Source: Paraphysoderma sedebokerense
Lineage: Eukaryota > Blastocladiomycota > Physodermatomycetes > Physodermatales > Physodermataceae
Assembly (NCBI GenBank): GCA_025602915.1
Contig: JAHLJZ010000106.1
Coordinates: 1 to 64,000, forward strand
Reading direction: 5' to 3'
DNA length: 64,000 nt
Below are positions 1 through 60,524 of the stretch, piece after piece (within the stretch, counting starts at the first letter, position 1; each line of letters starts with the position of its first letter). Made by a program: the position numbers and the translations under genes. Under the pieces are notes generated by a model, which was not told where the DNA came from, searched no databases, and was given only the letters and a program-made list of their open reading frames with translations.

Positions 1-288
1 CGCTGCGTATCTAAATTCATGTGGTACGATCAAGGTAACAAGAACGACAAAAGCAGTTGTATTTCACCAGAGAAGAGCGTTGTCGTACAAGTCGCCGATG
101 CTTGTCCCAGCATTCACAAGATAAACCGAAATAAAGGTAATCAGAACCCCTGTGGAGAAACCAGTAGAAGTTTGAACCACTTTGATCTCAACCGTGATGC
201 ATTCCAGGAGATTGCAAAGACCGGAGATGGAATCGTCCATATGGAGTTCAAAAGGGTCGACTGCTCTGTTGGGCTTGGAGTTAAATAA
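1..288 (+). CDS. Expansin-like DPBB protein, 3' part (cut by window edge)
   Basis: This is the C-terminal exon of a single-domain expansin-like (double-psi beta-barrel, loosenin/barwin-type) secreted protein; the rest lies left of the window. Reading frame 1 opens with RCVSKFMW, contains VVVQVADACPS and the family signature HFDLNRDAF, and ends LGVK-stop. HFD is the conserved expansin domain 1 motif. The segment is almost the same, base for base, as 3088-3374 in the next gene, so the two are head-to-tail tandem copies. Similarity fades right after the stop codons. Family members bind or loosen wall polysaccharides without hydrolysis; that role is inferred from the family. Confidence 0.8.
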   Translation, partial: RCVSKFMWYDQGNKNDKSSCISPEKSVVVQVADACPSIHKINRNKGNQNPCGETSRSLNHFDLNRDAFQEIAKTGDGIVHMEFKRVDCSVGLGVK

Positions 289-1423: not shown

Positions 1424-3374
1424 ATGTTCAACAATTTATTATTGTCGCTGTTGATATTCTGGCTATCTTACCAGCACACCAGCGAACAAATTCTGGTCCG
1501 GGCTCGAGAAAGCAGTCTCGGACATCTCGCCCCAGTCCAACGACACTGCCTTCGCTTCAAATACGAGAAAAATATATATCCGTCGGCATATTGGCCCAAT
1601 CTACAGCCTCAAAGGGTAAGCGTCAATAGTTACTCAAAAGTTACTTCTCCCTGCTGATCGATTGTACATATATAACTTGTGATAGCTCAACCGAAACGAC
1701 CCCAATCTCCACCGAAACCTGCCACGAAACCACAACCAAAACCGCAACCAAAACCTCAACAAAAACCTCAACCGAGACCCCAACCTAAATCTATATCTCC
1801 AAGCGCTCCACCGAAGTCTCAACCAAAACCGCAACCGAAAACTACACCTCCAACTCAAAGAGTTCAACCTAGACCCCCGCAACCGCCACCTCAGCGCAAC
1901 CAACCGAATCCGCAACCAAGACTGGGTGGTATACCTCAAACTCGAAACCCCAATCCTGGTAGCTCAGGACCGAACCCCAATCCCGCTCCGAATGAAAGCA
2001 ATACTGGACAAAGGCGTGATCCACCCAGAGTTGATAACCCTCCACGAAGTGGTTCAAGCAATGATCCACCTCGATCCGTTTCACCTAATGCAGGTGGTAA
2101 TCCATCCCGAAACGGTCCTCCTCAATCAGGGAATACCCCTAAACAAGGCAGCCCGAAAAATACGCCACTGAGAAAATCTCCAAACGGAGGCTATAGTCCT
2201 TCCAGAAACGGCTCACTAAAAACAGGCGATAATCAGAGACAAGGTGACTCTGGGACCAATCCACCGAAATCCGGATTTTCCAATGACGGCAATGCTAAAG
2301 ACTCCAAATCACCACAGTCTGGCTCCCCTAGCACCGGTAACAATCAAACGCGCACTCCGCGCAATGGTTCTCCAAACGATGGCAACAGTAAGAATCCAAC
2401 TCCTCCTCGGCCCGGCCCTCCAAACATTGGTAACAATCAAACTCGTACGTCTCCGCAAACTGGGCCTCCAAATAACCGGACTCTTGCTCCTCCTCAATCT
2501 ACCTCTCCCGACCCAAGAAATAATCAGACCCGTTCTCCTCCACGAACTGGGTTACCTAAAACAGGCAATAACCAAACTCAACCTCCAGAAAATCCTCCTG
2601 GTCAGACGAATGGTGATCCAAATGGTCATCAGGGTGGTGGACAGATTGGAGAGCCGAATGGTGGACAGGGTGGAGACCCCAGCGGGGGCAGTAAGTGGGA
2701 CCAGGACCCCCGGCAGAATCGGACTACATCGGTTGGATTTATTTTTGGCAGAGGTATGGTACATTTTGTCGGAAACATTTCTAAGTTTCTTTTTTTTTAA
2801 TTTTATTTGCATATAGCGTCCTTCTATCCTGGGCCCGGTGAGCCCGCGACAGATATGAGTAACCTTGCATGCCGGCAAAAAGTGAGTACGAAATACTTTG
2901 CCGCCATCTCTGATTTATCTCCTGGTATGTCCATTGTGATAATGCTCGCATTCATATTATCCACACCAATGGAGACACACCTAACATTGGCTCACAGTTT
3001 TCAATGGACCACCATGTCGCGAAAATCAATACGGTGGAACCCCTGATTGTCCGAATCAGGCATCCTGTAGACAATGCTTTCAAATTCGCTGCGTATCTAA
3101 ATTCATGTGGTACGATCAAGGTAACAAGAACGACAAAAGCAGTTGTATTTCACCAGAGAAGAGCGTTGTCGTACAAGTCGCCGATGCTTGTCCTAGCATG
3201 CACAAAATAAACCGAGGTAAAGGTAATCAGAACCCTTGTGGAGAAACCAGTAGAAGTTTGAACCACTTTGATCTCAACCTTGATGCATTCCAAGAGATTG
3301 CGACGACCGGAGACGGTATTATCCACATGGAATTTAAGCAAGTTGATTGCGCTGTTGGCCTTGGAGTAAATTAA
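1424..3374 (+). CDS. Secreted DPBB (expansin-like) protein with long proline-rich, NQT-repeat region
   Basis: Likely secreted wall-acting protein. A hydrophobic leader (MFNNLLLSLLIFWLSY) starts at 1424. From about 1685 comes a region of some 350 residues made of KPQPKPQ runs and imperfect PPRxGxPNxGNNQTR repeats; NQT is an N-glycosylation sequon seen four times. Introns at about 2754-2816 and 2926-2999 then lead into the DPBB domain: ASFYPGPGEPATDMSNLAC, YFAAISDLSP, CPNQASCRQCFQIRC and HFDLNLDAF, stop at 3374. The leader's frame does not join the proline-rich frame by the obvious GTAAGC donor at 1616 (needs phase 1, gives phase 0), so exon 1 or a splice site is uncertain. The last exon duplicates bases 1-288. 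The proline-rich part may be a glycosylated wall spacer (inference). Confidence 0.72.
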
Positions 3375-8594: not shown

Positions 8595-11500
8595 ATGTCG
8601 GTATTAGAATCGTGTATTGCTACAAAGCGAGGTTTTCTCGCCGTAGAATACGAAGACACACTTCAACTTCTACGCCGAACGACTCCGTCATTGAAAGCTT
8701 TGTGCCAGCTGAGGCAATTCGGAATAGAATCAAACGAGACGGCTCCGAGAAATTTCACCTCACAATACTAACATCGCACGAATTCAAACGGCTAAAGTCA
8801 AACCAACGATTGTCGATTGATGCTATTATTTCCAGATTCGAAGCCGTCCAACATAGTTTATCAATTGTCGGCCTTGGAACAAATCGCTCGGGCACTAAAT
8901 ATGGGCAATCGTGGTATTTGATTTGTTATTGGCCCGATGGAAACATTGTTCGTAGAAATTTGGGTCTATCTAAGAAAGATTTCACATTACTATTGGTTCA
9001 GCGACGAGGATATCCGTGATGCTGATAAAGGAATTGAAACGTTTGTTTACCTGAAGTACATACATGTGTCGACTCATATTTGGACTCTCTGGGTGCATAT
9101 TGCATACGAAATGGCCAAAGAGAGAGCAAACAAGCTGGAGAAAGCTGGCCTATTGAAATTTATGCAGGTGGTCATGGAGTCCAGGGATGATTTAGAGAAA
9201 CATGTCGAAGAAGCTACATTCAAGGCAGCAAACTGACACCAAAAAATTACTTGTCAAATTACTCTCGGCAAGGTCGCATTTGCTATTCTCAATGAAAAGG
9301 TATAGCGAAGCAATAGAGGATTCAATACAAATGCTCCAAATTCAACCGGAATCTCAAGTCGCACTTCTCCGTTACGCTGATTCAAATGCAAAACTGGGCA
9401 ACTGGAGAATGGCTCTCCGAACCTGTTACAGGGCACTAATACATACCATTCAGGACAACGTAACTGACCAACAAAGAAATGAAGTTCAGTCATATATTTT
9501 CGGAGTGCTGACAAAGGCGGTTGAAGACTATGGTGAACTTATTGGTTGCCGAATAGACGTCCTCACAAATGACGAGGATGATTTGAATGTGGATTACAGA
9601 ATCGATTTTTCTCAACTCAGCAGCAAATCTCGACAGTTGTATTTTTCCATCCTTCGACAAATTAGACAGAAAGTCCAGTATTCTCGTTACAGTCCGCCTC
9701 TGAATGACAACATCTATCGTTACAGTGTAGTCACCAATTTACTTCCATTTGGTACCGATAAGCTATTTCGTTTACCTCGCAATTTCAGCTCCATCATTCC
9801 ATTTTTTCTTTACGGTGCCTCGACTCCTCGAAATTCAGCCGATATAATTGCGTTCTCAGAACTTAAAATTGGACTCCTTTCACACAAGAAGAACCGCTTC
9901 AACCAACATGGTTCACCACTGATTTTGGCACTCGAAATGTGTTTTTGCCAATTCAAAATTACGAGCCTCCTATTATCGATCAAGTTGATATTTTTCTGTG
10001 GGAGCTCTACAAGATATGGTGTTCGAGCACCGACGACAACGAGAATAGAGTGGGCACATTGGTTCATTGCGGAGGAGGCAAAGGTAGAGCAGGGACAATA
10101 ATTGCATGTTACCTCGTTCGATTCGGATTTCAACCGTTTCCGGGGCAGTCTTTGCACATCTTGTCTGAAAGCATCGGATGAGATGGGAAGAATGAAATTC
10201 AATTCTAGTTGTGACAACCACGATGGGTGTTTGAATTGGGTCATGCCGGTTATGACGGGACAGGAAGCAGTTGAGAGGCTTAGGGAGGTGAGACCCGGAA
10301 GTATTGAAACCGATCAACAAGAACAGTTTGTAAGCACATGCGTCGATTACGCTTGGGCTCGTTTACATAAATGCAATCAATCCGGACCCGTAAGGGAAGT
10401 TTCGACTGACAGTCCTGCTGAGGATGGTCTATTGTGTTTTGGAAAACCGGATTCAGTACCATCATTTTTGATTCTAATGGGTCTTCCCGGCAGTGGTAAG
10501 GTTTATTTCATCTGTTTGTTTCCGTGAATTGGTGTTAAAAACATGCTCCATTCTCGTTTTTCTAGCGATAGGCAAGAGCTGGTTTGCGAACTCGCTAGTT
10601 CAGCTTTCGTCAACCATGAGCAGTACGCACAAATTTGTCTCCATAAATCAAGACGTCCTTGGTAGTCGTTCCTCGGTAGAGGATGCTCTGTATTCAGAAT
10701 CTCGTTATCTCTCTCCAGATCGAACCGTTGTTCTCGATCGGTGTAATCCAACTCGTGAAGATCGCAAGTATTTCATAGAATTAATGTTTAATCCAAAATC
10801 CTGCGGATGTGTATATTTCACGCCAAGCGAAGCCACTTGCAAGCATCGTGTGAAGAATCGCCGAGGCCATCCGACTATCCAAGAGAATTCCAAGCGGGGC
10901 GAATCGACAGTTAAGCATTTCGCCAAAGCTATTGAGGAACCGCATTTGAACGAAGGTTTTCAATCAATGTGGTTTGTAAAGAGTTTTAATGACGCAACAG
11001 AGCTGATTAGCCGTTGGACCGGGGTGGATGCAGGAAACGTAGAAACTGGAGATATATCAAGGGACAACGAAATAGAAACTCTGGACCGTACCATTTTGTA
11101 CAAGTTTCCTAGGACCCGACATTTATTCGACGCGGGCGGTAGTGGAGTCTCTCGAGACGATTTAGTTATTGCAGATGACGATTTTGTCCATGCAATCGTC
11201 AAACCTCTTTGCGAAACCTCAAAAACGTCAGTTCAATTAGTTCTTGAGGAAAAAATTGACGGTGCAAATCTCGGTATTTCGATTGATCCCCAGACAAAAG
11301 AATTCCGAGTCCAAAATCGGTCTCACTTTGTATTCTCTAATACCCACGTTCAGTTCTCACAACTCAATTCTTGGCTTAGTCAGAACTGTTCTGATCTGTT
11401 TTACATTCTCACTGGTACCTATTCTCCAACTTCGCAATGTTCAACCAATCGGATTCTATTTGGTGAATGGTGCTTTGCGAAGCATAGCATCAAATATACC

Positions 11501-11899
11501 AATCTTCCCGATTTATTTTTGGCATTCGACATTTTCGATGTCGCAAATTCCAAATTTTTATCTCGAGCTAAATTTCACTCCATCCTATCTAACACACGCA
11601 TAGCTACAGTTCCTTCTCTCCCAGACATTGATTTTGAATCGTTAAAATCAAAACGAGGTTGGACCGAACTATTCAAACGGCGTTCAGTATTTGCAGATAA
11701 CTATCTCGAGGGAATATATATACGGGCGGATGAAGGAGAGTGGTTAAGAGACAGATTTAAACTAGTTAGGCCAGATTTTTTAGCCAGTAGCCAACACTGG
11801 AGTACAGGGACGTTAGAAAAGAACATTGTTGACTACGAATGGAAGACTGAAAGAGAGATGTTATTACATCATGACTGCAGTTGGGATTGGGTCGTGTAA
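8595..11899 (+). CDS. Multidomain RNA-repair-type protein: 2H phosphoesterase - TPR - dual-specificity phosphatase - P-loop kinase - RNA ligase
   Basis: Domains in order. 2H phosphoesterase-like: KFHLTILTSHEF near 8750 (first HxT) and YLICYWPDG...LGLSKKDF near 8920-8980. TPR-like helices near 9270-9440 (RSHLLFSMKRYSEAIEDSIQ). Dual-specificity phosphatase: STPRNSADIIAF at 9826, NVFLPIQNYEPP and the P-loop HCGGGKGRAGT at about 10064, ending RPGSIETDQQEQFV. Polynucleotide-kinase-like P-loop: GLPGSGKSWF across an intron at 10496-10571, then INQDVLGS, VVLDRCNP and HRVKNRRGHPTI. RNA ligase: motif I EEKIDGANLG (11247), motif III-like GEWCFAKHSI, LEGIYIR, and motif V DRFKLVRPDF. The final two domains read cleanly to the stop at 11899. 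Upstream the frame changes near 8685, 8980, 9230, 9862 and 10135 with no splice signals, so the first half is either frameshifted by sequence error or decaying. The chemistry inferred from the families is end healing and sealing of broken RNA. Confidence 0.75.
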
Positions 11900-14812: not shown

Positions 14813-16562
14813 ATGAGCCCCACTGATTCTAAAGAATCCCTCATACCGTCATCGCCGCAAAAGTCAAGTGATATGGGTGAGTAACCTCTTTCCCACAGCC
14901 GACACCAATGCAAAATATTTCGTAGAAATTATTACTCTTCAATATTGTGCGATGATGAGAATTCCACATGTTTATTGGTGCTGTCTATCTTTTGGGCAGC
15001 TCAATGGAATCGAGATATATTTCTTTCGCAGAAGTATAATGGCATCACAAATCTCAAAATATCTTTCTCCTTCAACCTTCAAATGTGCTGTAATCTGTAG
15101 TGACAATGAAACTTTCAAACCGGAGTGCAATATGCTGTGTTTTTGACGATATTTGTTTAATGTGGCTTTATATTCGTTGGATTTATCAACTTTCTTCATT
15201 CGTTCGACGTTGCCCGAATGCTATCGTTGCAGATGACTAACTGATTCGTCCTTTTTTTGTTTTCTCGGTACCTTTTACTTCTATTTAAATTGCCATATCT
15301 ATTACTGTATCAACGCAGCATCGATGAAGTCCAAAGTCCCACAGAAACCCACTCGCCACGGTCATCCTGCATCGGGCTGGAAACCCCACCCCATATTCCG
15401 CTTCATTCAAAATCACCAAATCGATATTCCACTGCTACTCATACTTGTAGCTATTTTACCCCGACATCTGCCACATCTGTTTCCTAGTTTCGTTTCTCAG
15501 TTTTGTGCTTCTCTTTATACCCTATCCTACCCGACGGACACACCAATTCCGAATGATGAATTCGCCTCGTACTTGGAAAACAAACAACTTTATACTAATG
15601 GCCCGCTAGATGTCAACTTCACTCTTTTCTACGTTCTCGTCGTCTTATTAATTCGAGAATTGTCAATGCGATATATATTCCGGCCACTTGCAACTTTTCA
15701 TAACATAAGATCGTCCGCTATGATTACCAGATTCCAAGAGCAGGCTTGGCTCGCCGTCTACTACACTACATTTTTCTCTCTTGGTTTCTACTTAGCATAC
15801 AACTCTCCGTACTTCACGAATTTCACTTTGTTCTGGGTCAACTACCCCCATAAAACCTACAGCGGCCTTTTCAAGTCATATTACCTCCTACAACTTTCCT
15901 TTTCGATTGCCCAGCTGGTTGTATTGCATATTGAAAAGCCACGAAAAGATTATGTGCAATACCTGGTTCATCATATAGTCACCATTTGTCTAGTTGCTGG
16001 AAGCTATGCTATGAACTACACAAGAATAGGGAACATGATTTTTATTGTGATGGATGTCGCTGATATTTTCCTGTCTAGCGCCAAGTGCCTAAAGTACTTG
16101 GGCTACACCAATGCATGTGACGTTCAATTTGGTCTCTTCGTACTCGTTTGGTTCTTATCTCGGCACATAGCGTATCCATTGGTTGTATCTTCCATCCCAT
16201 TCGATTTATATGGATGGTCTTTGCCGTGGGAAGCACAATCGAAGCAACCGATTAAAATGAATTACGATCCCTCCAACGGCGCCTACCTCAGCGATAATGT
16301 GATTAGTGGATTTGTGGTTTTGTTTGCCGGATTGAAAGGATTAATATTATATTGGGGTTACCTAATAGCCAGAATTGTCGTTAAGGTTGTTAAAGGGAAA
16401 GGCGGTGCAGAAGATACGAGGAGTGATGATGAGAGCGATTGTGAAGAAGAAGAGATCAGAGACCCCGTCGATGTCGCCCCGAAAAGTAAACTCATCGGAG
16501 AACAGAGCAAGGAGAAAGTTGCAGTTGTGAAAAGTGGTAAAATTGGAAAGGAAAAGAACTGA
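14813..16562 (+). CDS. LAG1: Ceramide synthase, Lag1/TLC-domain family (copy 1)
   Basis: Two exons, 14813-14876 and 15319-16562, give 435 residues. Lag1 enzymes join a sphingoid base to acyl-CoA in the ER membrane. Seen here: a cytosolic start, then GWKPHPIF and the first helices; LFKSYYLLQLSFSIAQLVVLH; the Lag1 motif region with the double histidine in YLVHHIVTICLV, then NYTRIGNMIFIVMDVADIFL, which carries the paired aspartates; and a last helix before an acidic tail (DTRSDDESDCEEEEI). The acidic C-terminus resembles the casein-kinase-2 sites of yeast Lag1/Lac1 (family knowledge). The 442-nt intron is the longest of this gene family here. Paralogues lie at 36270 (-) and 40459 (+). Confidence 0.93.
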
Positions 16563-36269: not shown

Positions 36270-37508
36270 TCAATCGTCATCTGAATCATCTTCATTATCA
36301 CTGCGATTATCTTCCGCGCCACCTTTCCCCTTTATCACTTTCACCACAATCCTCCCGATCAAGTAGGCCCAGTAACATATCAAGATTTTCAATCCGACAA
36401 ACAAAATCATGAAAACAGTAGCAACACCGTAACTCAAATAGATTTCGTTTTTAGGATCCCAAACAGGGTCAATAACTGCTATGACGTCAACGAATATAGA
36501 TCTTACGATGTAAAGATACACGAAATGTCTTGAATAGATCCAAGAGAGCACGAACACCACGAACGTAAAGTCACATGCTTTCTGGAATTTCAAGTATCGA
36601 AGACATTTGGCGGTAGAGAGAAAAATATCGGCGAAGTCCATAGTCACGAAAACAGCGTGTCCAATTCTAATGAAATTCATGTAGTACGATAGCGACACTA
36701 ACATAATTGTGACGATATGGTGAACCAAGAATTGAGTGTAATCTTTACGTGGTTTTTCGAGGTGGAGAACGACCAATTGCGCTATCGAAAACGACAGCTG
36801 GAGAAGATAATAAGATTTGAAAACAGCAGTGTAACGAATATGCGGATAATCTGCCCAAAAGTTGGGTGTATTGAAGTAGTATGGTGAATGGTACAGTAGG
36901 TAAAATCCCAGAGAAAAAAAGGTGGAATAGTATAACGAGAACCAAGCTTGTTCACAGAATCGATCCTGAGCTTCTTTTTTAATGATTTTGCGTAATCGGG
37001 TGATTGGCAAGAAGACATATCGAAAACACAAAGCCCTGGCGAAAATGATGATGAGAACGTAGAACGACACAAAACGAAAGTCGAGGCGCCCCTTGGTGTA
37101 AAGAACCGAGCCGTGTTCGTCAACTTCGTGAGTTTTATGAGAAAGTTTGTAGAAAGATTCGCTGAATGATTTAACATTTGGAGGGATGAAAGAGGGGAAG
37201 AAATGTGGAAGAAGGATATAAAGTATAATCATGAGAGGAACATCGAATTGGTGGGCTTTTATATTCTCGAAGATCGGGTGCGGTGTCCATTCAGATATAT
37301 TCGAGCGGTAAGTGGTGGTTAGGTTTTTGCCATTCTGATATCCATTCTCCTTGTATTTTCTAGCATAGCCTACAACTGTCGTCAGAAATTTTGTGTTCTT
37401 CAGATTTAGAATTTGTTTTGAATACATACCATTCTGCAATTTATTGCTATCTTTGGCTTCTTCCTTCCTCGATACCTCCGAACCCAACGTTTGAACTTTG
37501 GTAGACAT
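36270..37508 (-). CDS. LAG1: Ceramide synthase, Lag1/TLC-domain family (copy 2)
   Basis: A single exon of 412 residues; the other two copies have an intron near the start, so this copy lost it or begins differently. Landmarks match the family: EWTPHPIFENIKAHQFDVP, FKSYYLLQLSFSIAQLVVLH, FLVHHIVTIMLVSLSYYMNF, then RIGHAVFVTMDFADIFL with the paired Asp, and a C-terminal helix followed by GKGGAEDNRSDNEDDSDDD. The double His is present, so it should be catalytically able. It has a long N-terminal extension of about 90 residues (KNTKFLTTVVGYARKYKEN) not seen in the others. Its orientation opposes its paralogues. Confidence 0.93.
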   Translation of the reverse strand: MSTKVQTLGSEVSRKEEAKDSNKLQNGMYSKQILNLKNTKFLTTVVGYARKYKENGYQNGKNLTTTYRSNISEWTPHPIFENIKAHQFDVPLMIILYILLPHFFPSFIPPNVKSFSESFYKLSHKTHEVDEHGSVLYTKGRLDFRFVSFYVLIIIFARALCFRYVFLPITRLRKIIKKEAQDRFCEQAWFSLYYSTFFSLGFYLLYHSPYYFNTPNFWADYPHIRYTAVFKSYYLLQLSFSIAQLVVLHLEKPRKDYTQFLVHHIVTIMLVSLSYYMNFIRIGHAVFVTMDFADIFLSTAKCLRYLKFQKACDFTFVVFVLSWIYSRHFVYLYIVRSIFVDVIAVIDPVWDPKNEIYLSYGVATVFMILFVGLKILICYWAYLIGRIVVKVIKGKGGAEDNRSDNEDDSDDD

Positions 37509-38937
37509 CTGGCGATTAGTGAAGCGGGAGAAAATTATTTAATATGATTATGAATTGTATAGGCAAAGAGAATTCAGTCTTGTTATCTCCTCAAGAGCCT
37601 AATGGCATCAATCAATGAGTGGGCTGGCTCTTCGAAGAGTCACTTTTCAAAACGCAATTAGCGAAACTTTTTGCGAAAGCTATAATGAGAAACATATATC
37701 GAAGTGCATTCATGCATTATAAAGAATTTATCAGTCAAAATCAAAATATCTACAATACTATATATAACATAGTATATTGGTCGCTTCAATACTCTAACAG
37801 TCGATTGCTATTACAACAGAGCGAGGAAACACGAATAATTGATCCTTACCGTAATCTATTTGACCTTGTACACTTCAACTCCCTTGGATCTCGAGACTAA
37901 ATCCTGGCAGAAGAAGGAACATTCGCTTGTGGATTCTAATAGATGAATTTTAGTTATGAGCGACTGAATATTTTATCTCCCTTGCTTCATTAAAGATTGC
38001 TATTAATAAATTAAAAACATGACGTCACTGTACATGGGGTCTTCCGCGCCTTGACTGGGTTAAATTGCCATCCACGTATTCCTACGTTTAACAAGCATTC
38101 ATTGTTCCATTTTTGTGATTATCGTCGCAGTAAATTATTCATTCCGTAATGATGAAATACCATAAAACAGCACGAATGTGTTAATTGGCGGAATCGATTG
38201 AACTACTTACGGAGCACACTTTCTACTGCAACAATGAATGCTCTGTTTATGTTTGCAACATTCACTTTGCTAAATTCATCTTTGATTGAGAATAACCTGA
38301 GAATTAATGTTATTGATGACTCATTTTTGTCATCGTAGGCCTTCAAATCTCGCCAACTCCGTGAAATTTCGACTCTTAATCGGACTCAACTGGCCCCAAT
38401 CAAATTTCGTGTTCCCAAATTTCGACCATGTATCTGAATTCGAAAACCAAAATTAGATACAGAGGACAATATTCTAATTTGATATTCAAGCATTTTGCTA
38501 CTTCAAGTCTAAACAATGGTCGTCGCTCTTATATCGGTTTAGGGACAATCAAGCAAGCCCCCTATTCAGCATCTTCCGTTCCAGCAAGCCAAAATCACCG
38601 GTTGCAATGCGTTCAACAATACGAACGGTCATATTTAAGTGAGAAGGCTCGACTTAGGTGTCCGAGAATATAATGTATCACTGGGTTCAAATACCCATAA
38701 GCAAGATTTCCAGCCGGCTTGGTAATTCAACCGGAAGGGAATTAGAATTATGGCGACTGCGACATGGCAAATTGTTGTATTGTTAACGATTTCAGAATGA
38801 GACTGTATTTCTATTTTTATAAATGCATAAAGGGCTAGATCCTGGTATAAATACCTTCAAGAGATCTTGTCAAGAATTAACCAATCTTACCATACATTCC
38901 CACATAAATATAAAATATCAATATACCTTAAATTACA
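37509..38937. other. Divergent promoter region between Lag1 copy 2 and DPBB gene 4
   Basis: 1.4 kb of non-coding DNA between two divergent genes. The right end holds a TATAAATA box (38846). Several short frames but no recognisable protein. Confidence 0.4.
38846..38853 (+). promoter_or_regulatory. TATA box of DPBB gene 4
   Basis: TATAAATA, 92 bp upstream of the ATG at 38938; the longer string TATAAATACCT resembles the one before the secreted gene at 32940. Confidence 0.5.
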
Positions 38938-39707: not shown

Positions 39708-40458
39708 ACAGTGTGCGCACTTTCCTTAATTATGTAGCGAGCACTTATTAGTATGTGGAGGCCTCTTTCCTTGTAAATTAAGATCCATTATCAAAATTTC
39801 ACTGTTGATCAAATCATCCGCTTGATAGCATTCCTGTTGTATACATCCACTTTTGTTAAATAAAGAATAAATAGTACATTTGTGAAATAGTTTGCATTCG
39901 TTGCTATGATATATTTAAAAAGACTTCGGCAATGAAAAAATTCCGGCGTCGGAAAAAAGAAACTGTGCCGCAGTTGCTGTGCCACAGATCCACGTGATTG
40001 CCACATGGATCGAAAACTCGAAAAGTTTCACTCCCCTTGGGCCCCGTCCTCGCAAATTTTTTTCTTTTAATTTCGACATTTGACGACAGCACAGCTTTGG
40101 CAGATATAACCATATCAGAGTTGTGATATAGCAGAGATAGATTGTTCGTCATTGTGCTGGCCTCCGGATATAGCTACTCTGATCAAGGTACTGATTTGCC
40201 CTCGGTTGTTGTGACACCTGATTCCGCTTGGACAAACTGATGTTTCTTCTGATTGCATATAATCAAAAGAAACTAATAATAAATTCATTGTATACTGACT
40301 TTTTCTTTCTAACTTTCATTGTTTAGTCCTACTGTTTGTGATTATTGGTTTATTGTTACCTTTTTCTGTTGATCTCTTTCTGCCGCGGCATACACCATCG
40401 GCACTATCGATTTTAATCTGCAGAAAGTGCTAAAGGTTATCGGTACCAAGTTTGCATT
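39708..40458. other. Intergenic spacer
   Basis: Non-coding DNA between DPBB gene 4 and Lag1 copy 3. Nothing beyond short frames is seen. Confidence 0.35.
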
Positions 40459-41738
40459 ATGGCAACAGAAAGCATCACCGAACCCAATTCTGTATTGGTT
40501 CAAAAAGTAAAAGGTCTGTGATCAAGTTCCATCTAACAAATTCGTCAAACCTTTGTCGCTCACATTTGCTTGGTCTCCCCGCAGCCCCTGACGCCGGCCA
40601 GATAAAACTGAAGAGTTCCAAGCCAAAATCCAGATCAAGATATTCCGTCCCAAAAGATTGGAAACCTCACCCCATTTTCGCACTCATCAATTCACAACTA
40701 CTTACCTTCCCGCCGCTTCTTATATTCTTCACTGTCCTCCCGTCCTTTGCCCCCACACTTTTCTCGCAACACACTCTTGATTTCACGCAATCGTTCTTCA
40801 AACTTTCTTATCTGACGTCTTTACGAAACGAGGATGATCAGCTATTATATACCAAAGGCCGTAATGACTTTCGCTTCGTTGCATTCTACATCATTGTTAT
40901 TGTCTTCCTTCGTCAGTTGACGATGCAATATGCTTTCAAACCATTCGCCAAGTACATGGGCACCAAATCTTCTGCTCTCCGTGAACGATTTTGTGAACAA
41001 GCTTGGTTCTCGATCTACTATAGCACATTTTTCTCAATCGGCTTATACTTGGCGTATCACTCACCGTATTGGCTTAGGACAGAATATTTTTGGGTCGATT
41101 ATCCTCATATGCATTACACCGGTTTATTTAAATCATATTATCTTCTTCAGTTATCTTTTTCTCTAGCGCAAATTGTCGTTTTGCACTTAGAGAAACCCCG
41201 AAAGGATTATGTACAATTCTTGGTACACCATCTCTTAACTATCGGATTGGTTTCATTATCCTACTACATGAACTTTACACGAATCGGGAACGCAATCTTC
41301 ATCACCATGGACTTTGCGGACATATTTCTCTCCACCGCTAAATGTTTAAAATACATCAAGTTTCAAAAATCGTGTGACGCCATGTTTGTTCTTTTTGTGG
41401 TGGCATGGATTTTCTCCCGACATTTTGTTTACATCGGTATCGTTCAATCTATATACACAGACGTAATTGCCGTTAGACCTTTAATTTGGAAGCCGGAGGA
41501 AGGAATGTACATGAGTTACACTACCGCTTGTGTGTTTGTAGCATTATTTGCCGGGTTGAAGATTTTGATTTTGTACTGGGGATGGCTTATTATGAAGGTC
41601 GTAGTGAAGGTTGTGACGGGCAAGGGCGCCGAAGATAATAGAAGTGATGGAGAAGAAAGCGACGACGAAAATGTGGAAATCAAAGATTCTGTCTCCACAA
41701 ACAGCGAAAATCAAACTGCGAATAAGAGTCAATGGTAA
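40459..41738 (+). CDS. LAG1: Ceramide synthase, Lag1/TLC-domain family (copy 3)
   Basis: Two exons, 40459-40513 (MATESITEPNSVLVQKVK) and 40585-41738, give 402 residues; the donor GTCTGT is unusual but phase and family length agree. Landmarks: DWKPHPIFALINSQLLTFPP, FKSYYLLQLSFSLAQIVVLH, FLVHHLLTIGLVSLSYYMNF, RIGNAIFITMDFADIFLST with the paired Asp, and tail GKGAEDNRSDGEESDDENVE. The double His is intact. It is closer to copy 2 than to copy 1 (shared RFCEQAWFS, SLSYYMNF, FQKxCD), so copies 2 and 3 are the younger pair. Expected in the ER membrane; each paralogue may use a different acyl chain (inference). Confidence 0.93.
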
Positions 41739-53595: not shown

Positions 53596-54800
53596 TCACC
53601 CTTTACTACTTTTCACGTGCTCCCACTTCCCAAGGATCCAGCATCTCCTAAAATCATCATTCATGGCCAAAAACATATTCGCAGTCTGCTCCTCCTTGAG
53701 CATCTCAACAATAGATATACACTCTATAGTCGGTAATTTCAACTCGGCGGTTATCTCCATGAACTGTTCTATCGCTTTCTTTTGATAGTTTGAATCTTGA
53801 CTCATATGCTGACATTGGTTACACTCCGCCGACGATTGCGCCAATTCTAACTGCTGAATCCTCTTTTTCAAAATGGCGACGTCCGCCTATATAGATTTAA
53901 TAGGTGTAATACACACCACAATGCAGTCAGTATCCTGTTTATCTTCTCCGATTCTCCACATTATCAACATGATCCAAGATCCAAAATTGTCGGTCGACTT
54001 ACCTGACAGGTGTCTAGTAACCGATCAAATCTCTTGTTCGTTTCATACACGTATTTTTCTATACAGCGAATTTTCGCCATGAATTCTTGACAATCGTAAT
54101 TTATCTAAAATCGATGGTACGGGTTTAGTGGTGCATGTAATATACGAATTGACCGAGTAAGAGTAGGAATTTTAATAAGAACACCCCCTGTAAACCAGAT
54201 TCTTACCGCTTCTTGCTCTTCCCTTTCTTTAAGTTTTCGTAAAAGCGTCCCACCATAAGTCACTTCTTCCAGCTCTTTCACGTCGGCACCATTTTCGATC
54301 AAAAGTTTGGCAAGATGAACGTATTTAGAAGTATCTAGGAAATGGGCACCCCGGGCGGCGACTTGCAGAGGTGAAAGATTTTCGTTTTTCCGTCCCATTG
54401 TAATAGCTTGCGGCGTCGCTTCCGTCCGCCAGGAAACATTTGAACCGTTTTTGAGTAAAATTTCAACCATCGTAGACCATCCCATCTCGCAAGCCTGATG
54501 AAGTAAGGTCGGGTCCCTCGAATCTGCGCCTTTCTCGATAAGAAACTTGACCATGTCTTCATCGCATTCATTGAGTGCACGCCGTAATAGACTTCCACCG
54601 CAACCGTGTAATTTGTAACCATTTTCGAGCATAAATCTTAATACTTCCACCTGCTTGTGTTCGACACATTTATGAGCAATTTGAGACCATGGGTCGCCGG
54701 AGCACACAGGGGCGTCCTTCGGGAATTGAAGTAACATCGACTTGGCGGTTTCCACATCCCCTTCTTCAATTTTCCCAATTATCATAAACTGATTTATCAT
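53596..54800 (-). CDS. Ankyrin-repeat protein with coiled-coil tail (copy 1, not tail-anchored)
   Basis: ATG 54800 (MINQFMIIGKIEEGD); the frame upstream starts only with TTG. Exon 1 (to about 54207) holds about five ankyrin repeats, such as EVLRFMLENGYKLHGCGG, MVKFLIEKGADSRDPTLLHQ and HLAKLLIENGADVKELEEV, ending YGGTLLRKLKEREEQEA. Exon 2 (about 54107-54004) reads INYDCQEFMAKIRCIEKY and exon 3 (53871 or so down to 53596) begins ADVAILKKRIQQLELAQ, a coiled coil. Unlike its paralogues it ends WEHVKSSKG with no membrane helix, and gains a Cys pair (CNQCQH). It may bind partners in the cytosol; role unknown. Confidence 0.75.
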
Positions 54801-55589
54801 ATTTCGTTCAAATTGATGTGTGGATAAGTGAGCCAAGAGGCAGAAAATTCCGAAAATCTCATTTGCTTTTCTTCCACAGGTTCACATGGCCATAATTGGA
54901 ATCATGGATTACTATTCTTAGTAGCAAACCACAATACGCATTTATCCCGTTCTTACCTGATCCAACTATATCCGTTGAACCACACTCAACTTTCTGAATG
55001 CCCCGCTTTCAAAACTTTTTAATTCAATTCGCTAACGGTTAAGTTCTCAAAGATGAGTATATTGAACGATGAATCCAAAATCGGGTTTAACTGTGCAGAC
55101 TCGATGGATCATGGATTTGTGGATGCATCATCAGTTGAAAGGCTATCTAGCATGGAATGTTCACGATTTTCAAGTCATAAAGTTAACAACAGATTTACAC
55201 TCTGAATCTTTTGACACATGATTCATCGCTGGAAATTACACAAGATATGCACTCTAAATTCAAATATGATTTGTATTTGTGAACCAGTAATTTACATCTC
55301 TGTAGCCCATGACTGTTGATAAGAGAAGCGATTTGTGAAAACTGAAAGTTCTGGGTTTCTTTATTTTTATCAAGATTGGTTAATGTTTCTTGTTTTTTGC
55401 ATCGTATTATTTTTATTTTACGGTTCAGATGAATGGCGATTTTGATAAGTTTTAGGTTTTCTTAATTTTATCATGATTCCGTTTTGTCCTTTGAATTGTT
55501 TATTTTTTTTGGCAGAACAAAGAATTATAAAACTCAAAAAGTAAATCATACTCGACGCTTAATTAAATTAAAATTTTCGTTCGCCACTT
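54801..55589. other. Spacer in the ankyrin cluster
   Basis: AT-rich, non-coding. It separates ankyrin copy 1 from a fragmentary copy. The frame at 54828-55022 (+) has no motif. Confidence 0.35.
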
Positions 55590-56060
55590 TAATATGAAAT
55601 TACAAAGAAACCCACCGACACTGTAATGACAAGGGTCAATTTGACGGCAGATTCTAACTGCGTCACCTTGCCTTTTAAAATATCAATTTCTGCTGCCTGG
55701 GTATTAATCAAACTCAGATGGTGCGCCGAGATACCCATGATCAATTTCATAATGGTTTCTGTCAAGGCTCTGACTTCAGCTTGATCCTATATTATATATA
55801 TGTAAAAAGCAGAATTTGCATAATTTTTTAGGCCCGATATGAAAATATATTTTACCGTAATTATAAGTTTATCATGAAATGTACGAAAGAAGACTTAAAA
55901 TGTCACTTTAACTTACCCGGCCGATAAAAAGATTGAACCGTTTCATTTTCAAAACGGTCAAGTCGCTTTGTAACATTCGTTCAGAGACATCGTCATGGCT
56001 TGTAACTTTTATCAATCTTTGTCTGTCAGTGGTAGTCACTGGACACAGTTCAGCTTTCGA
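55590..56060 (-). pseudogene. Coiled-coil/membrane-anchor fragment of an ankyrin-family gene
   Basis: Minus-strand exons at about 55590-55786 and 55917 upward join in phase across an intron (donor GTAAGT, acceptor TATAG). They read MLQSDLTVLKMKRFNLFIGR, then DQAEVRALTETIMKL, QAAEIDILKGKVTQLESAV and a hydrophobic end KLTLVITVSVGFFVISY-stop. This is the ILKxKxxQLES coiled coil plus tail anchor of the ankyrin genes at 56511 and 57964, in the same orientation, but no ankyrin exon precedes it. Either the 5' part has been lost, or it is a short tail-anchored protein with its own start that I have not found. Confidence 0.6.
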
Positions 56061-56510
56061 ATTCGAAATAAAGCGGTTCGGTATAACTGTTATAATTTGG
56101 GCCCAACGAAACCATAAATTTTGTGGACCGCACTCGATATAGGGTTAAATTTTTAACAAGTTACTGTTGTCGCAGAATAAGTAACAGATTTCAGCAAACG
56201 TGGGATTCTGGATGCTAAAATAAGGAACCCGAAATATTCATCGTTTTCTTTTCGTGTTATTTTGGGTAATATTAGTTCACTTTTCTATATATATGTCCAA
56301 ACATAATGGTAGATGGAGACTGGTGAAGGTGGATTCAAAGAAAGGTTACATCAATATATTAAAAGTAGATATTGCTTTTGTGATTCAAAACGTGCGCACG
56401 CGAGAGATAAGAATTACATATTGCAAATTTTACGTTATATTTAATACGAACAATACCAAATCTTTAAAAGTAATGATATACTCAGCGGTTCAGTATACTT
56501 TGTGTTTAAG

Positions 56511-57555
56511 TTATTTTATTATTGTGTACATTAAAAAAGCTACGAAAGCGACGATAACTGACGCTTTGAAACCAAAATTTTGAAAATCCGTAGTACTTTT
56601 GACTGATGATTCTAATTGTTGTATCTTGGCTTTTAATATAGCTACATCAGCCTGTTATATATAAAAAATACATATACAATAGTGGAGTTAGTATCAAGTT
56701 ATCCTGTGAAGTGATCTAGTATCCAGGACTGATGATTGTCTAAATGAATTACGAATTCTTGATGAACAGAGTTGATTTACCTGACTGGTTTCTTGTAACC
56801 GCTGCAACGATTTTTCTAGGGATTGAGTTTTTGATGTTAATTCTTGATATTGAGATTTCATCTAACGGTTAGGTACGTGAGAAGCATAGGGTTAAATTAA
56901 ATTGAAAATTAAGGGATGTCACGACTTGGTACTTAAGAAACCGAAAATAGATTCTTACCATTTCTTGTTCCTCTAGCTCTTTGAGTCGACGTTTAAGAGT
57001 TCCACCGTAATCTACCTCTTCTAGTTCTCTGATGTCGGCACCATGTGCCAGCAACAGTTTGGCGAGGTGAACGTAGTTGGAAGTATCAAGGAAATGGGCA
57101 TTTCGAGCGGCGACTTGAAGAGAAGTAAGATGTTCTGTTTTCACCCCGATGATACAGGTATCGGGACCGATTGTAAATCTTGAAGAAACATCCGAAAGTG
57201 ACTTGAGCATGAATTCCGCCAATTCGACCAATCCCTTATCGCAAGCTAAATGTAGTAAATCCTTCCCTTTGGAGTCCATGATTGCAGGGCCTTTGTCGAA
57301 TAGGAATCTTGCCATTCTCTCGTTGCCAAAACATATTGCGTCAAACATAAGATTATATCCCATTTTACATATATCAAGACCTCTATCCAGCATGAAATTT
57401 AAGATGTCGGGTTGATCGTTTTCATCGCATAATGCAGCGAATTGATTCCAATGACCCGCTTCGTTGCTGTCACAAGGATACTGGAGTAAAAGTAACTTTG
57501 CTCGTTCTACATCCCCTGCTTCAATTGTCCTTATTATGTCATCTGCGGAAACCAT
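56511..57555 (-). CDS. Tail-anchored ankyrin-repeat coiled-coil protein (copy 2)
   Basis: Three exons: 57555-56959 or so, about 56862-56781, and 56655-56511. Exon 1 (MVSADDIIRTIEAGDVERAK) holds about five ankyrin repeats (DILNFMLDRGLDICKMGYN, RMARFLFDKGPAIMDSKG, LLHLACDKGLVELAEFML, HLAKLLLAHGADIRELEEV). Exon 2 starts MKSQYQELTSKTQSLEKSL (coiled coil). Exon 3 has ADVAILKAKIQQLESSVKS and ends with a single hydrophobic helix (ASVIVAFVAFLMYTIIK-stop), a classical tail anchor that would place the protein on the ER or outer mitochondrial membrane with its ankyrin part in the cytosol. Upstream and downstream paralogues share exon plan and phases. Confidence 0.78.
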
Positions 57556-57963
57556 TTTGAATTGCGATTTCAGTGAAGATGAGATATGTCGACCCGGGGA
57601 CGTTTCCTTGTTTATTCAACCCCTGCCCGGGCCATACGACTCGTCGATAATTCGATTGGTCTAATTTAGCAAACTGAATAGCTTTGGATTAACTTGATCC
57701 ATTATATTTCATTGGATATGTAATTTTTTGTTGAAGATTTGTAGTGCATTTGATTTTTTTTTTTTTTTTCAATTCGTAGTAAATTCTACACGGAGTATTC
57801 TTACGCCTACGGAATACAACATCTTGTGGAATGTAGTGTCGACTGTGAAATGTCCGATTCCAGATTGAGAATTAAGTTTCATTATATGAAGTTTGTATAT
57901 AAAAATTTGGAATGTTGACAGAACGACAACTGCTTTCATTTAACACAAACTGAACTTTGCCTT
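57556..57963. other. Spacer between ankyrin copies 2 and 3, part of a duplicated flank
   Basis: The promoter side next to copy 2 (GATGAGATATGTCGACCCGG... TTTCCTTGTTTATTCA) resembles the region just upstream of copy 3 (about 59329-59365), and the side next to copy 3 (about 57801-57963) resembles about 59571-59733. Both are traces of segmental duplication. A poly(T) run lies near 57753-57770. Confidence 0.55.
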
Positions 57964-59305
57964 CTACAGCACCCGAAACAACACAAAGGCAATCGCGATT
58001 GCCGCTAACGGTAGTAGTATGCCCTGATAATCTGATTTCTGCGCTCCAGATTCTAACTGTGCTATTTTTGTTCTTAAAATTTTGATTTCCGATTCTTGAG
58101 ATGTCAGCTGCTTTTTGTGTTGTTCTGCTAAAAATGTAGTGAGTTGCGTCTGAGAGGCCATCTGCTGTTTGTGTTGTGCGGCTACAGATGTAGTGAGTTG
58201 CGCCAGAGCTACCGTCATCCTTTCCATGCCGAATCTGTCCTCCCGGATGTGAGTTTTTTCCTTTATAAAATAAAATACAATTTTAACAAAAGTTTGTAAA
58301 TACTGATAAGTATATCTTAACGTCTTACTTTGGATATCGTGACAACTTCCTCTTCACAAGAACCGAGTCTTCCGTTTAAATCGTTTAAATGTTTCTCCAT
58401 TAAATGAGATTTCGCCATCACTTCCTCAGCCAATGATTGTACCTGCGTCCGAAAAAACATTAATTCAACCAGAAAATACTTTTACGCAAACGAAGCAAAT
58501 ATTTTACCATCTTCAATTCTTCTAACAATGTTTCTTGGCCTTCTGGTTCTTCAAGAGATTCGGACTTGTTTATTAAATCATTCAAAGTCGCTTCGAAAGA
58601 TTGTGTTTTTGTTTTCAATTCTTGATAGTGAGATTTCATCTGTTTGAATCAGAAGTCACTGTGGTTAATTAATTGATTGAATTTTGAGATTTAAGATAAA
58701 ATTGTTACCGTTGAGAGTTCCTCCATTTCTTTGAGTTGACGTTTTAGAGTTCCACCGTAATCTAGCTCTTCTAGCTCTTTGATGTCGGCGCCATGTGCCA
58801 GCAACAGTTTGGCAAGATGAACGAATTTCGAAGTGTCTAGGAAATGGGCATTGCGTGCGGCTATCTGAAGTGGAAAAAGGTTTTCGTTTTTCACTCTGAT
58901 TCTTAAGTCCTCATAAGACGCTTTTATCCTTGAAGAAACATCCGAACCCTTTTTGAGCATGAATTCAGCCAAGTCTACTGATCCCTTATTGCAAGCGACA
59001 TGGAATAAGTTCGTTCCAGGTTGGTGGTTCGTTTTTGCACCCTTCTCGACGAAAAACTTAGCCAATTCCTCGTTACTGAACTGTATAGCGGTCGCTAGCA
59101 AATTGTATCCCACAATATTTATATCAAGACCTCTTTCCAGCATGAATTTTAAAAGTTCGAGGTGGTTGTTTTCAACGCATAATCGAGCGCATTCTTGCCA
59201 ATGTCCAGCTTTGTTAGCATCATAAGGATACTGGAGTAAAAGTAACTTTGCGCCTTCAACATCTCCTGCTTGAATTGTCCTTTTTATGTCTGCTTCGGAG
59301 ACCAT
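57964..59305 (-). CDS. Tail-anchored ankyrin-repeat coiled-coil protein (copy 3)
   Basis: About four exons. Exon 1 from ATG 59305 (MVSEADIKRTIQAGDVEGAK) to about 58710 holds the ankyrin repeats (LLKFMLERGLDINIVGYN, LFHVACNKGSVDLAEFMLKK, HLAKLLLAHGADIKELEEL, YGGTLKRQLKEMEELST). Then MKSHYQELKTKTQSFEATLN, VQSLAEEVMAKSHLMEKHL, and EKTHIREDRFGMERM, a longer coiled coil than copy 2 with a duplicated motif AAQHKQQMASQTQLTTF / AEQHKKQLTSQ, ending IKILRTKIAQLESGAQKSDY and the hydrophobic anchor ILLPLAAIAIAFVLFRVL-stop at 57964. It is closest to copy 2; the coil has been lengthened by internal duplication. Confidence 0.8.
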
Positions 59306-60524
59306 TTCTAGTTCCGATGGTGGTGGAGATGAGAAATATCGATCCGGAGAGGTTTCCTTGTTTATCCAGCCTGGCGTGGGCCATACAACTAGTTGCTAAT
59401 TTTGGCGATCAGTATGATCGAGGGCAAAGAACTACTTCAAACTGAATTGGTTTGAAAAAACTGAATCATCAATATTGCAATGAAGTTCTTTGGAGATGAA
59501 GACAGTGTAGTGAAATTCTGATTTCCTCTTTGATCTGTGCAGATACATACTAGGCAGGCCACAGGGTATCATTACCGCGGGGTGCAACACCTCGTCCAAC
59601 GCGGCGTTGACAGTAAAATGTACGACTTGAGATTCAAATTGAAGTTACATTATATCGGCTGTTATTTTAAAATCTGGATTTGTAAAGAAAAGACAACTGC
59701 TTTCGTCCCAGCACAATGTTTTCCCTCTTTTACAGCACCCGAGCAGCCCAGAGCCATGTGATTGCCGCAATGAATAGTGGTATAACCAGATAATCTGATT
59801 TAAGTACTGACTGCTAACATTTAGTGATTTGGCTGACTGACACAAATAATCAAATTCTAGACAACTTCTAGATTTGATCTGAATTCGTAACCTCACTTTA
59901 TCCTGCTGCAGAGACGGATGCTCTACTGATCTACCCAAGTCTAGTAGCAGCATGTTGCTGTACATTCTAATACACAGACGTTCAAGCTTGGAGCATTGGA
60001 TAGCTAGCAGAATGTTTTGCGAACAAAAGTCGGTTGTATTGTCAGACTGAACAATTGGAATGGAGCAGTCGTGGATTCGGGAGCGTGACTTGGCAATTGG
60101 GGAGACTCGCAGTCGCGGCCATACTCTGATTACATATGTGATAATATTATTACTACTAGACTGTATACAGAAGTGGACATGATATATACAGAGTTGTTTT
60201 GAAAACAGCGATTGTATCTATTGTAGAATTTGTGAATTGTGAATTAAAATCTGTTCTGGATTGATGAGAGTAGACAAATCTGTTGTAGAGATGCGAACAG
60301 GACGGCCGAGTTGACTTTTACTCTCTCATTCGCATCTTTATATTGCTGTGGCCATCTTCAGTCTTCTTTTATTAATCTTCTTTATTTGCTAAACGGTGAT
60401 TCTCGCTGGTAGAAAACCACCATTGTCAATTTGTCAATTGTCACTCACTCCACATCTGACCACCCTCATTCCGCACCACTTCAAATCCTCCCCGATATAT
60501 TAGTACCTATACTTCATATACCAA
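59306..60524. other. Intergenic region with ankyrin-gene remnant and tRNA-like segment
   Basis: Besides the remnant at 59733-59800 and a tRNA-like stretch at 59872-59947 (minus), there is no coding sequence. The left part is the promoter of ankyrin copy 3; the right part is the promoter of SNX4. Confidence 0.4.
59733..59800 (-). pseudogene. Remnant of the C-terminal anchor exon of a lost ankyrin copy
   Basis: Minus strand reads KSDYLVIPLFIAAITWLWAARVL-like sequence then stop; it parallels KSDYQGILLPLAAIAIAFVLFRVL of copy 3. The 160 bp on its stop side (about 59571-59733) also resemble the flank of copy 3 (about 57801-57963). No ankyrin or coiled-coil exon is left next to it. Confidence 0.65.

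What the first reader, a model, noticed from the sequence alone, without database searches (positions are those of the whole stretch)
8595..11899. One gene carrying 2H phosphoesterase, TPR, dual-specificity phosphatase, P-loop kinase and RNA ligase
Seen: motifs of each domain in order, including HxT (KFHLTI), the Cys-x5-Arg phosphatase loop HCGGGKGRAGT, Walker A GLPGSGKS and ligase motif I EKIDGANLG with downstream motifs III-V. Known: 2H phosphoesterases open 2',3'-cyclic phosphates, kinases and phosphatases heal ends, and nucleotidyltransferase-fold ligases seal RNA; classical fungal Trl1 has the order ligase-kinase-CPD. Here the order is reversed and a DSP-type phosphatase and a TPR are added. 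Inferred: an all-in-one RNA repair enzyme different from Trl1, possibly answering RNA damage by ribotoxins. I recall related fusions in other fungi, so the architecture may not be new; its biology appears little studied.
Basis: partly seen in the sequence, partly recalled or inferred. Interest (0 to 1): 0.75.

Follow-up and report, generated by a model that had tools for sequence, protein, structure and literature searches.

The report
Frame-broken fungal Swiss-Army-Knife RNA repair gene
This stretch of a fungal-type genome encodes, in order, five parts of an all-in-one broken-RNA repair enzyme that databases already call a "Swiss Army Knife" protein, but in this sequence the first half carries several single-base breaks in the reading frame, so only the last two parts (kinase and ligase) can be read intact.

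Summary
The motifs are real and in the stated order: 2H phosphoesterase, weak TPR, DSP-type phosphatase, P-loop kinase, RNA ligase. Pfam already holds the first and third as 'Swiss Army Knife' families (2H-SAK, 1e-22; PTP-SAK, about 1e-43), so this is a member of a described enzyme class, not a new architecture. Contrary to 'one gene', 8595-11899 is not one reading frame even after splicing. There is one clear intron (10496-10571, inside the Walker A motif). At least three single-base breaks remain that introns do not explain: 8978 and 8995, either side of the second HxT motif, and about 9877, inside the phosphatase. A fourth break is likely near 8.66 kb. The kinase and ligase are intact. SF3B3 and three TLC genes in the same window show no breaks in about 6.8 kb of coding sequence, so a uniform error rate is unlikely. 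A patch of bad consensus and a decaying N-terminal half both remain open. The closest ligase relatives I could reach (34-41% identity) are bacterial, several of them on plasmids or mobile elements as the third gene of a module resembling candidate anti-phage system HEC-03. That is circumstantial support for a conflict-related RNA repair role.

The parts
8595..8665 (+). Putative start (ATG) and N-terminal stretch, frame 0; joins the 2H domain only through a further -1 shift near 8.66 kb
   Evidence: No homologue covers this stretch convincingly, so the start is an inference
8684..9048 (+). 2H phosphoesterase (2H-SAK, PF22547): first HxT (FHLTI) in frame 2, second HxT (FHITI) in frame 1, following GFSDEDIRDADKG in frame 0
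   Evidence: Pfam 1e-22 when joined, 3.6e-15 for the frame-2 piece alone; bacterial homologues L093/L094 align across the breaks
8978..8996 (+). Two single-base losses flanking the second HxT motif
   Evidence: Frameshift-aware alignment places both at 8978 and 8995 with two independent homologues
9283..9423 (+). TPR-like helical repeats (weak)
   Evidence: TPR_19 0.0039-0.0075, TPR_1 0.0035-0.009, all below cut-off
9775..10332 (+). DSP-type phosphatase (PTP-SAK, PF22784), with catalytic loop HCGGGKGRAGT at about 10065-10097
   Evidence: Pfam 7e-44 over positions 1-153 when joined; nearest solved relative DUSP23, 5e-9
9867..9882 (+). Single-base loss inside the phosphatase domain (frame 1 to frame 0)
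   Evidence: Profile position 34 ends at 9876 in frame 1 and position 39 begins at 9882 in frame 0
10148..10208 (+). Possible 61-nt intron (GTCTTT..TTCTAG, weak donor) between profile positions 119 and 121 of the phosphatase
10465..10942 (+). P-loop polynucleotide-kinase-like domain (AAA_33), Walker A GLPGSGKS spanning the intron
   Evidence: Pfam 1e-9; PDB 9drz 3e-14, 9d8a (Rhizopus azygosporus kinase) 1.3e-13, bacterial Pnkp kinase domain 4mde, mammalian PNKP
10496..10571 (+). Spliceosomal-type intron, 76 nt, GTAAGG..GATAG
   Evidence: Restores GSGKS in frame
11081..11899 (+). ATP-dependent RNA ligase domain (PF09414), all nucleotidyltransferase motifs intact, stop at 11897-11899
   Evidence: Pfam 1.2e-28; invariant EEKIDGAN, GE, EG, K-V-R columns in 14 homologues; AF2 model pLDDT 80.6, Foldseek top hits Naegleria RNA ligase, TbREL1, T4 Rnl2

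Best explanation
The locus is a eukaryotic (fungal-type) 'Swiss Army Knife' RNA-repair gene. The ancestral protein reads 2H - TPR - DSP phosphatase - polynucleotide kinase - RNA ligase. Proposed action: 2H opens a 2',3'-cyclic phosphate at an RNA break, the DSP-type phosphatase removes the remaining 2'/3' phosphate, the kinase phosphorylates the 5'-OH with NTP, and the Rnl2/NgrRnl-like ligase seals 3'-OH to 5'-P with ATP. Shown here: the domains, catalytic motifs and fold class. Inferred: the reactions and their order. In this sequence the end-clearing half is broken by at least three one-base shifts, while the kinase-ligase half is intact.
For: Domain profiles in order. Ligase motifs invariant in homologues, and the fold matches RNA ligases. 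The kinase matches Pnkp-type kinases and a fungal kinase. Frame breaks are located with independent homologues and adjacent profile positions. Control genes in the window show no breaks: SF3B3 aligns over 1043 aa to human SF3B3 and three TLC ORFs of 422-441 aa are intact.
Against: No substrate or activity is tested. DSP enzymes also act on proteins, lipids and RNA 5' triphosphates, so removal of a 2'/3' phosphate is a guess. No intact eukaryotic orthologue could be fetched with these tools. The paper that, from memory, describes the SAK class is not held.
Confidence: 0.72

Rival explanations
1. The gene is intact in the organism, and the frame breaks are local consensus errors in this assembly.
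For: All secure breaks are one-base losses. There are no other stops in the coding frames, catalytic residues are preserved throughout, and the C-terminal half is intact.
Against: No breaks in about 8.4 kb of other coding sequence counted (control genes plus this gene's C-terminal half), including runs of 5-6 identical bases. The chance that 3 uniform errors all fall in the 1.3-kb N-half is about 0.002. The losses are not in long homopolymers.
Confidence: 0.45
2. The N-terminal end-clearing half is really decaying (a young pseudogene, or a gene being reduced to a kinase-ligase), while kinase and ligase may still be made from a shorter product.
For: Breaks cluster in the first half. The kinase-ligase ORF keeps every catalytic motif over more than 450 codons. 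The possible intron at 10148 has a poor donor.
Against: The Walker A motif straddles an intron whose upstream exon is still in frame with the end of the phosphatase. No alternative promoter or start is shown. No premature stops in the coding frames besides those caused by the shifts.
Confidence: 0.45
3. The segments are two or more separate genes lying side by side.
For: Several frames are used.
Against: Breaks fall inside single domains (2H, phosphatase), and the Pfam family names indicate that these domains belong to one kind of protein elsewhere.
Confidence: 0.07

Closest known systems
Swiss Army Knife (SAK) proteins: Pfam 2H-SAK PF22547 and PTP-SAK PF22784
   Same: Both N-terminal catalytic domains match well above the curated cut-offs, followed by kinase and RNA ligase
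   Different: This copy is frame-broken in the 2H and phosphatase domains; the full domain order of other members could not be compared here
Fungal/plant tRNA ligase Trl1
   Same: Same three kinds of activity (cyclic phosphodiesterase, kinase, ATP-dependent ligase) in one chain
   Different: Order reversed, different ligase subfamily (Trl1 ranks below NgrRnl, TbREL1 and T4 Rnl2 in the fold search), added DSP phosphatase and TPR
Naegleria NgrRnl / T4 Rnl2 / TbREL1 RNA ligases
   Same: Nucleotidyltransferase fold and motifs; best PDB profile and fold matches
   Different: 13-18% identity; NgrRnl and Rnl2 are not fused to healing domains
Bacterial RNA ligases in HEC-03-like modules on plasmids and mobile elements
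   Same: 34-41% identity over most of the ligase, the closest relatives reached
   Different: Stand-alone protein next to an AAA_15/DUF3696 ATPase and a small HEC-03A-like protein
T4 Pnkp-Rnl1 and bacterial Pnkp-Hen1/Rnl RNA repair
   Same: Same logic: clear 3' phosphates, phosphorylate 5'-OH, seal
   Different: 3' phosphatase is of another fold and the parts are separate proteins (established knowledge)

Membership tests
Swiss Army Knife (SAK) | 2H-SAK domain with two HxT motifs | tested here: met
   PF22547 1e-22 when joined. Both motifs present, but in different frames
Swiss Army Knife (SAK) | PTP-SAK phosphatase domain with Cx5R loop | tested here: met
   PF22784 up to 7e-44 over the full profile; HCGGGKGRAGT intact. 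The profile also rings on generic bacterial DSPs at much lower scores
Swiss Army Knife (SAK) | Domains in one polypeptide with kinase and RNA ligase | tested here: inconclusive
   Contiguous and in order, but at least three frame breaks that introns do not explain
ATP-dependent RNA ligase (PF09414, Rnl2-like) | Motif I KxDG and motifs III, IV, V | tested here: met
   Invariant E56-N63, G128-E129, E210-G211, K227 in 14 sequences
ATP-dependent RNA ligase (PF09414, Rnl2-like) | Ligase fold | tested here: met
   AF2 pLDDT 80.6; Foldseek 1e-6 to NgrRnl and TbREL1
Pnkp-type polynucleotide kinase | Walker A and similarity to 5'-OH kinases | tested here: met
   GLPGSGKS after splicing; 9drz, 9d8a, 4mde and mammalian PNKP hits
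Trl1 tRNA ligase | Order ligase-kinase-CPD | tested here: not met
   Observed order is 2H-TPR-DSP-kinase-ligase
RNA repair system | Healing and sealing activity on RNA | not testable with these tools
   Needs biochemistry

The most novel reading that the evidence does not exclude
The sealing half of the fungal Swiss Army Knife enzyme was captured from a bacterial mobile-element defence module (HEC-03-like ATPase, small effector, RNA ligase). In this lineage the end-clearing half is being lost, leaving a kinase-ligase that depends on another enzyme to clear 3' ends.
Probability: 0.13. Interest if true: 0.6.

Novelty: new member of a known kind. Interest (0 to 1): 0.33.

Why it matters
Single-chain enzymes that could carry out every step of repairing a cleaved RNA are little studied, and a working orthologue would be a compact system for asking what cleaves RNA in fungi and how it is mended. 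The present copy mainly gives a corrected anatomy: it should not be annotated as one intact gene without transcript evidence. The link between its ligase and a defence-gene neighbourhood in bacteria gives a testable idea about origin.

Tried and rejected
Intron-only gene model: possible by dynamic programming but it deletes the second HxT motif and the start of the phosphatase and scores lower in Pfam, so rejected. Uniform sequencing error: judged unlikely against SF3B3 and TLC controls. Long-homopolymer errors: the secure breaks lie in short runs while runs of 5-6 elsewhere stay in frame; which base was lost is not determined. Viral relatives of the phosphatase and kinase: none found. The HCGGGKGR[AT]GT pattern in 84,980 prokaryote genomes found only a small unrelated Paenibacillus/betaproteobacterial DSP. 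2H-SAK in prokaryotes: rare stand-alone proteins (2 of 299 and 0 of 299 genomes above cut-off). Codon-usage log-odds alone were too weak to place the breaks. Papers on SAK and on PDB 9d8a/9drz: not held or not found. Whole-genome search for Trl1/RtcB: no genome held.

Full report
OBSERVATION. Profile searches make this far more than chance: 2H-SAK PF22547 (1e-22), PTP-SAK PF22784 (3.5e-42), AAA_33 (1e-9), RNA_ligase PF09414 (1.2e-28). TPR matches are weak (0.004 or worse, below cut-off). The descriptions of the first two families are 'Swiss Army Knife, 2H phosphoesterase domain' and 'Swiss Army Knife protein, DSP-PTPase phosphatase domain', so the multi-domain class is already recognised. From memory, it was described by Burroughs and Aravind; the candidate papers are not held, so this is a lead only.

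GENE STRUCTURE. The kinase Walker A is interrupted by a clear 76-nt intron, 10496-10571 (GTAAGG..GATAG), and splicing gives GLPGSGKS. The N-terminal half cannot be read in one frame. In the phosphatase, the frame-1 ORF matches profile positions 1-34 up to 9876, and the frame-0 ORF matches 39-119 from 9882. Joining them raises the score from 97 to 150 bits and covers positions 1-153. This leaves no room for an intron, so one base is missing there. In the 2H domain, two bacterial homologues found by profile (L093, L094) align without interruption as ...KDFHVTLGF... A frameshift-aware alignment to the window finds two single-base losses, at 8978 and 8995, on either side of the second HxT motif. 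A further shift near 8.66 kb is likely but has no homologue support. The change at 10148-10208 is better explained as a small intron with a weak donor. The change near 9230 is unresolved.

ERROR OR DECAY. SF3B3 (43-47.9 kb, about fifteen introns) aligns over 1043 residues to human SF3B3 with 1321 bits and no frame break within its exons. Three TLC-domain ORFs of 422-441 aa are intact, as is the 3' half of this gene. If errors were uniform over the roughly 8.4 kb of intact coding sequence counted plus the 1.3-kb N-half, three falling only in the N-half would have probability about 0.002. This excludes a uniform error rate but not a local patch of poor consensus. I hold local error and real decay about equally likely.

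WHAT IT IS. The ligase half has every nucleotidyltransferase motif invariant across 14 homologues. Its AlphaFold2 model (pLDDT 80.6) matches Naegleria RNA ligase, trypanosome REL1 and T4 Rnl2 best; Trl1 ligase domains rank lower. The kinase is closest to two solved P-loop kinase structures, one of them from Rhizopus azygosporus, then to Pnkp-type kinases. The phosphatase is closest among solved structures to DUSP23. The expected chemistry is therefore: 2H opens the cyclic phosphate, the phosphatase clears the remaining phosphate, the kinase adds the 5' phosphate, and the ligase seals. Only the domains, motifs and folds are shown; the reactions are inferred from the families.

RELATIVES. The nearest ligases that these tools reach are bacterial, 34-41% identical. 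In seven loci (L001, L003, L004 and plasmids L088-L091) the ligase is the third gene after an AAA_15/DUF3696-type ATPase and a small protein. In L001 and L003 these two match PADLOC HEC-03B and HEC-03A; in the other five the match rests on gene order, size and annotation. PADLOC has no model matching the ligase. This is circumstantial support for a conflict-related origin. It is limited by the absence of eukaryotic collections here, and no tree was built.

NAMING. The gene fails the Trl1 order test and is not a Trl1. It meets the SAK domain tests but, in this sequence, not the single-polypeptide test. Organism: no genome is held. Spliceosomal introns and the kinase's similarity to a Rhizopus enzyme point to a fungus; the exact lineage is not established.

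VERDICT. A new, frame-broken member of a known kind, of moderate interest. The intact-gene reading should wait for transcript or read evidence.

Noticed in passing
L001:1219-3810, L003:3063-5678, L004:2894-5498, L088-L091: RNA ligase (PF09414) is the recurring third gene of a module with an AAA_15/DUF3696-type ATPase (PADLOC HEC-03B, 1e-124 in L001) and a small HEC-03A-like protein; PADLOC's models do not include the ligase. L001 and L003 also carry an integrase-like gene just upstream. Possibly a third component of candidate defence system HEC-03.
   Followed up: partly
L092: A Pseudomonas aeruginosa plasmid carries a related RNA ligase followed directly by an AAA-family ATPase, without the small HEC-03A-like gene.
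   Followed up: no
window 15237-16559, 36273-37538 (-), 40434-41735: Three related intronless ORFs of the TLC (TRAM/LAG1/CLN8, ceramide-synthase-like) type within 27 kb; Pfam was run on the first only.
   Followed up: partly
window 2985-3371, about 12.6-13.3 kb, about 39.0-39.6 kb: Expansin-like double-psi beta-barrel proteins in several copies; the 12.6-kb gene starts 0.7 kb downstream of the ligase.
   Followed up: partly
window 54108-59395 (-): Several similar ankyrin-repeat-like ORFs in tandem.
   Followed up: no
window 29-79 and 3115-3165: The same translated stretch (IKVTRTTKAVVFHQRRA) appears twice about 3 kb apart, suggesting a duplicated segment.
   Followed up: no
L093:1165-1890, L094:1465-2067: Stand-alone bacterial 2H-SAK proteins, apparently with signal peptides, rare (2 of 299 genomes in one phylum).
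   Followed up: partly
L019-L083: A small bacterial DSP family with HCGGGKGRTGT, mostly in Paenibacillus and Cohnella and in betaproteobacteria such as Vogesella, unrelated to SAK in length and context.
   Followed up: no
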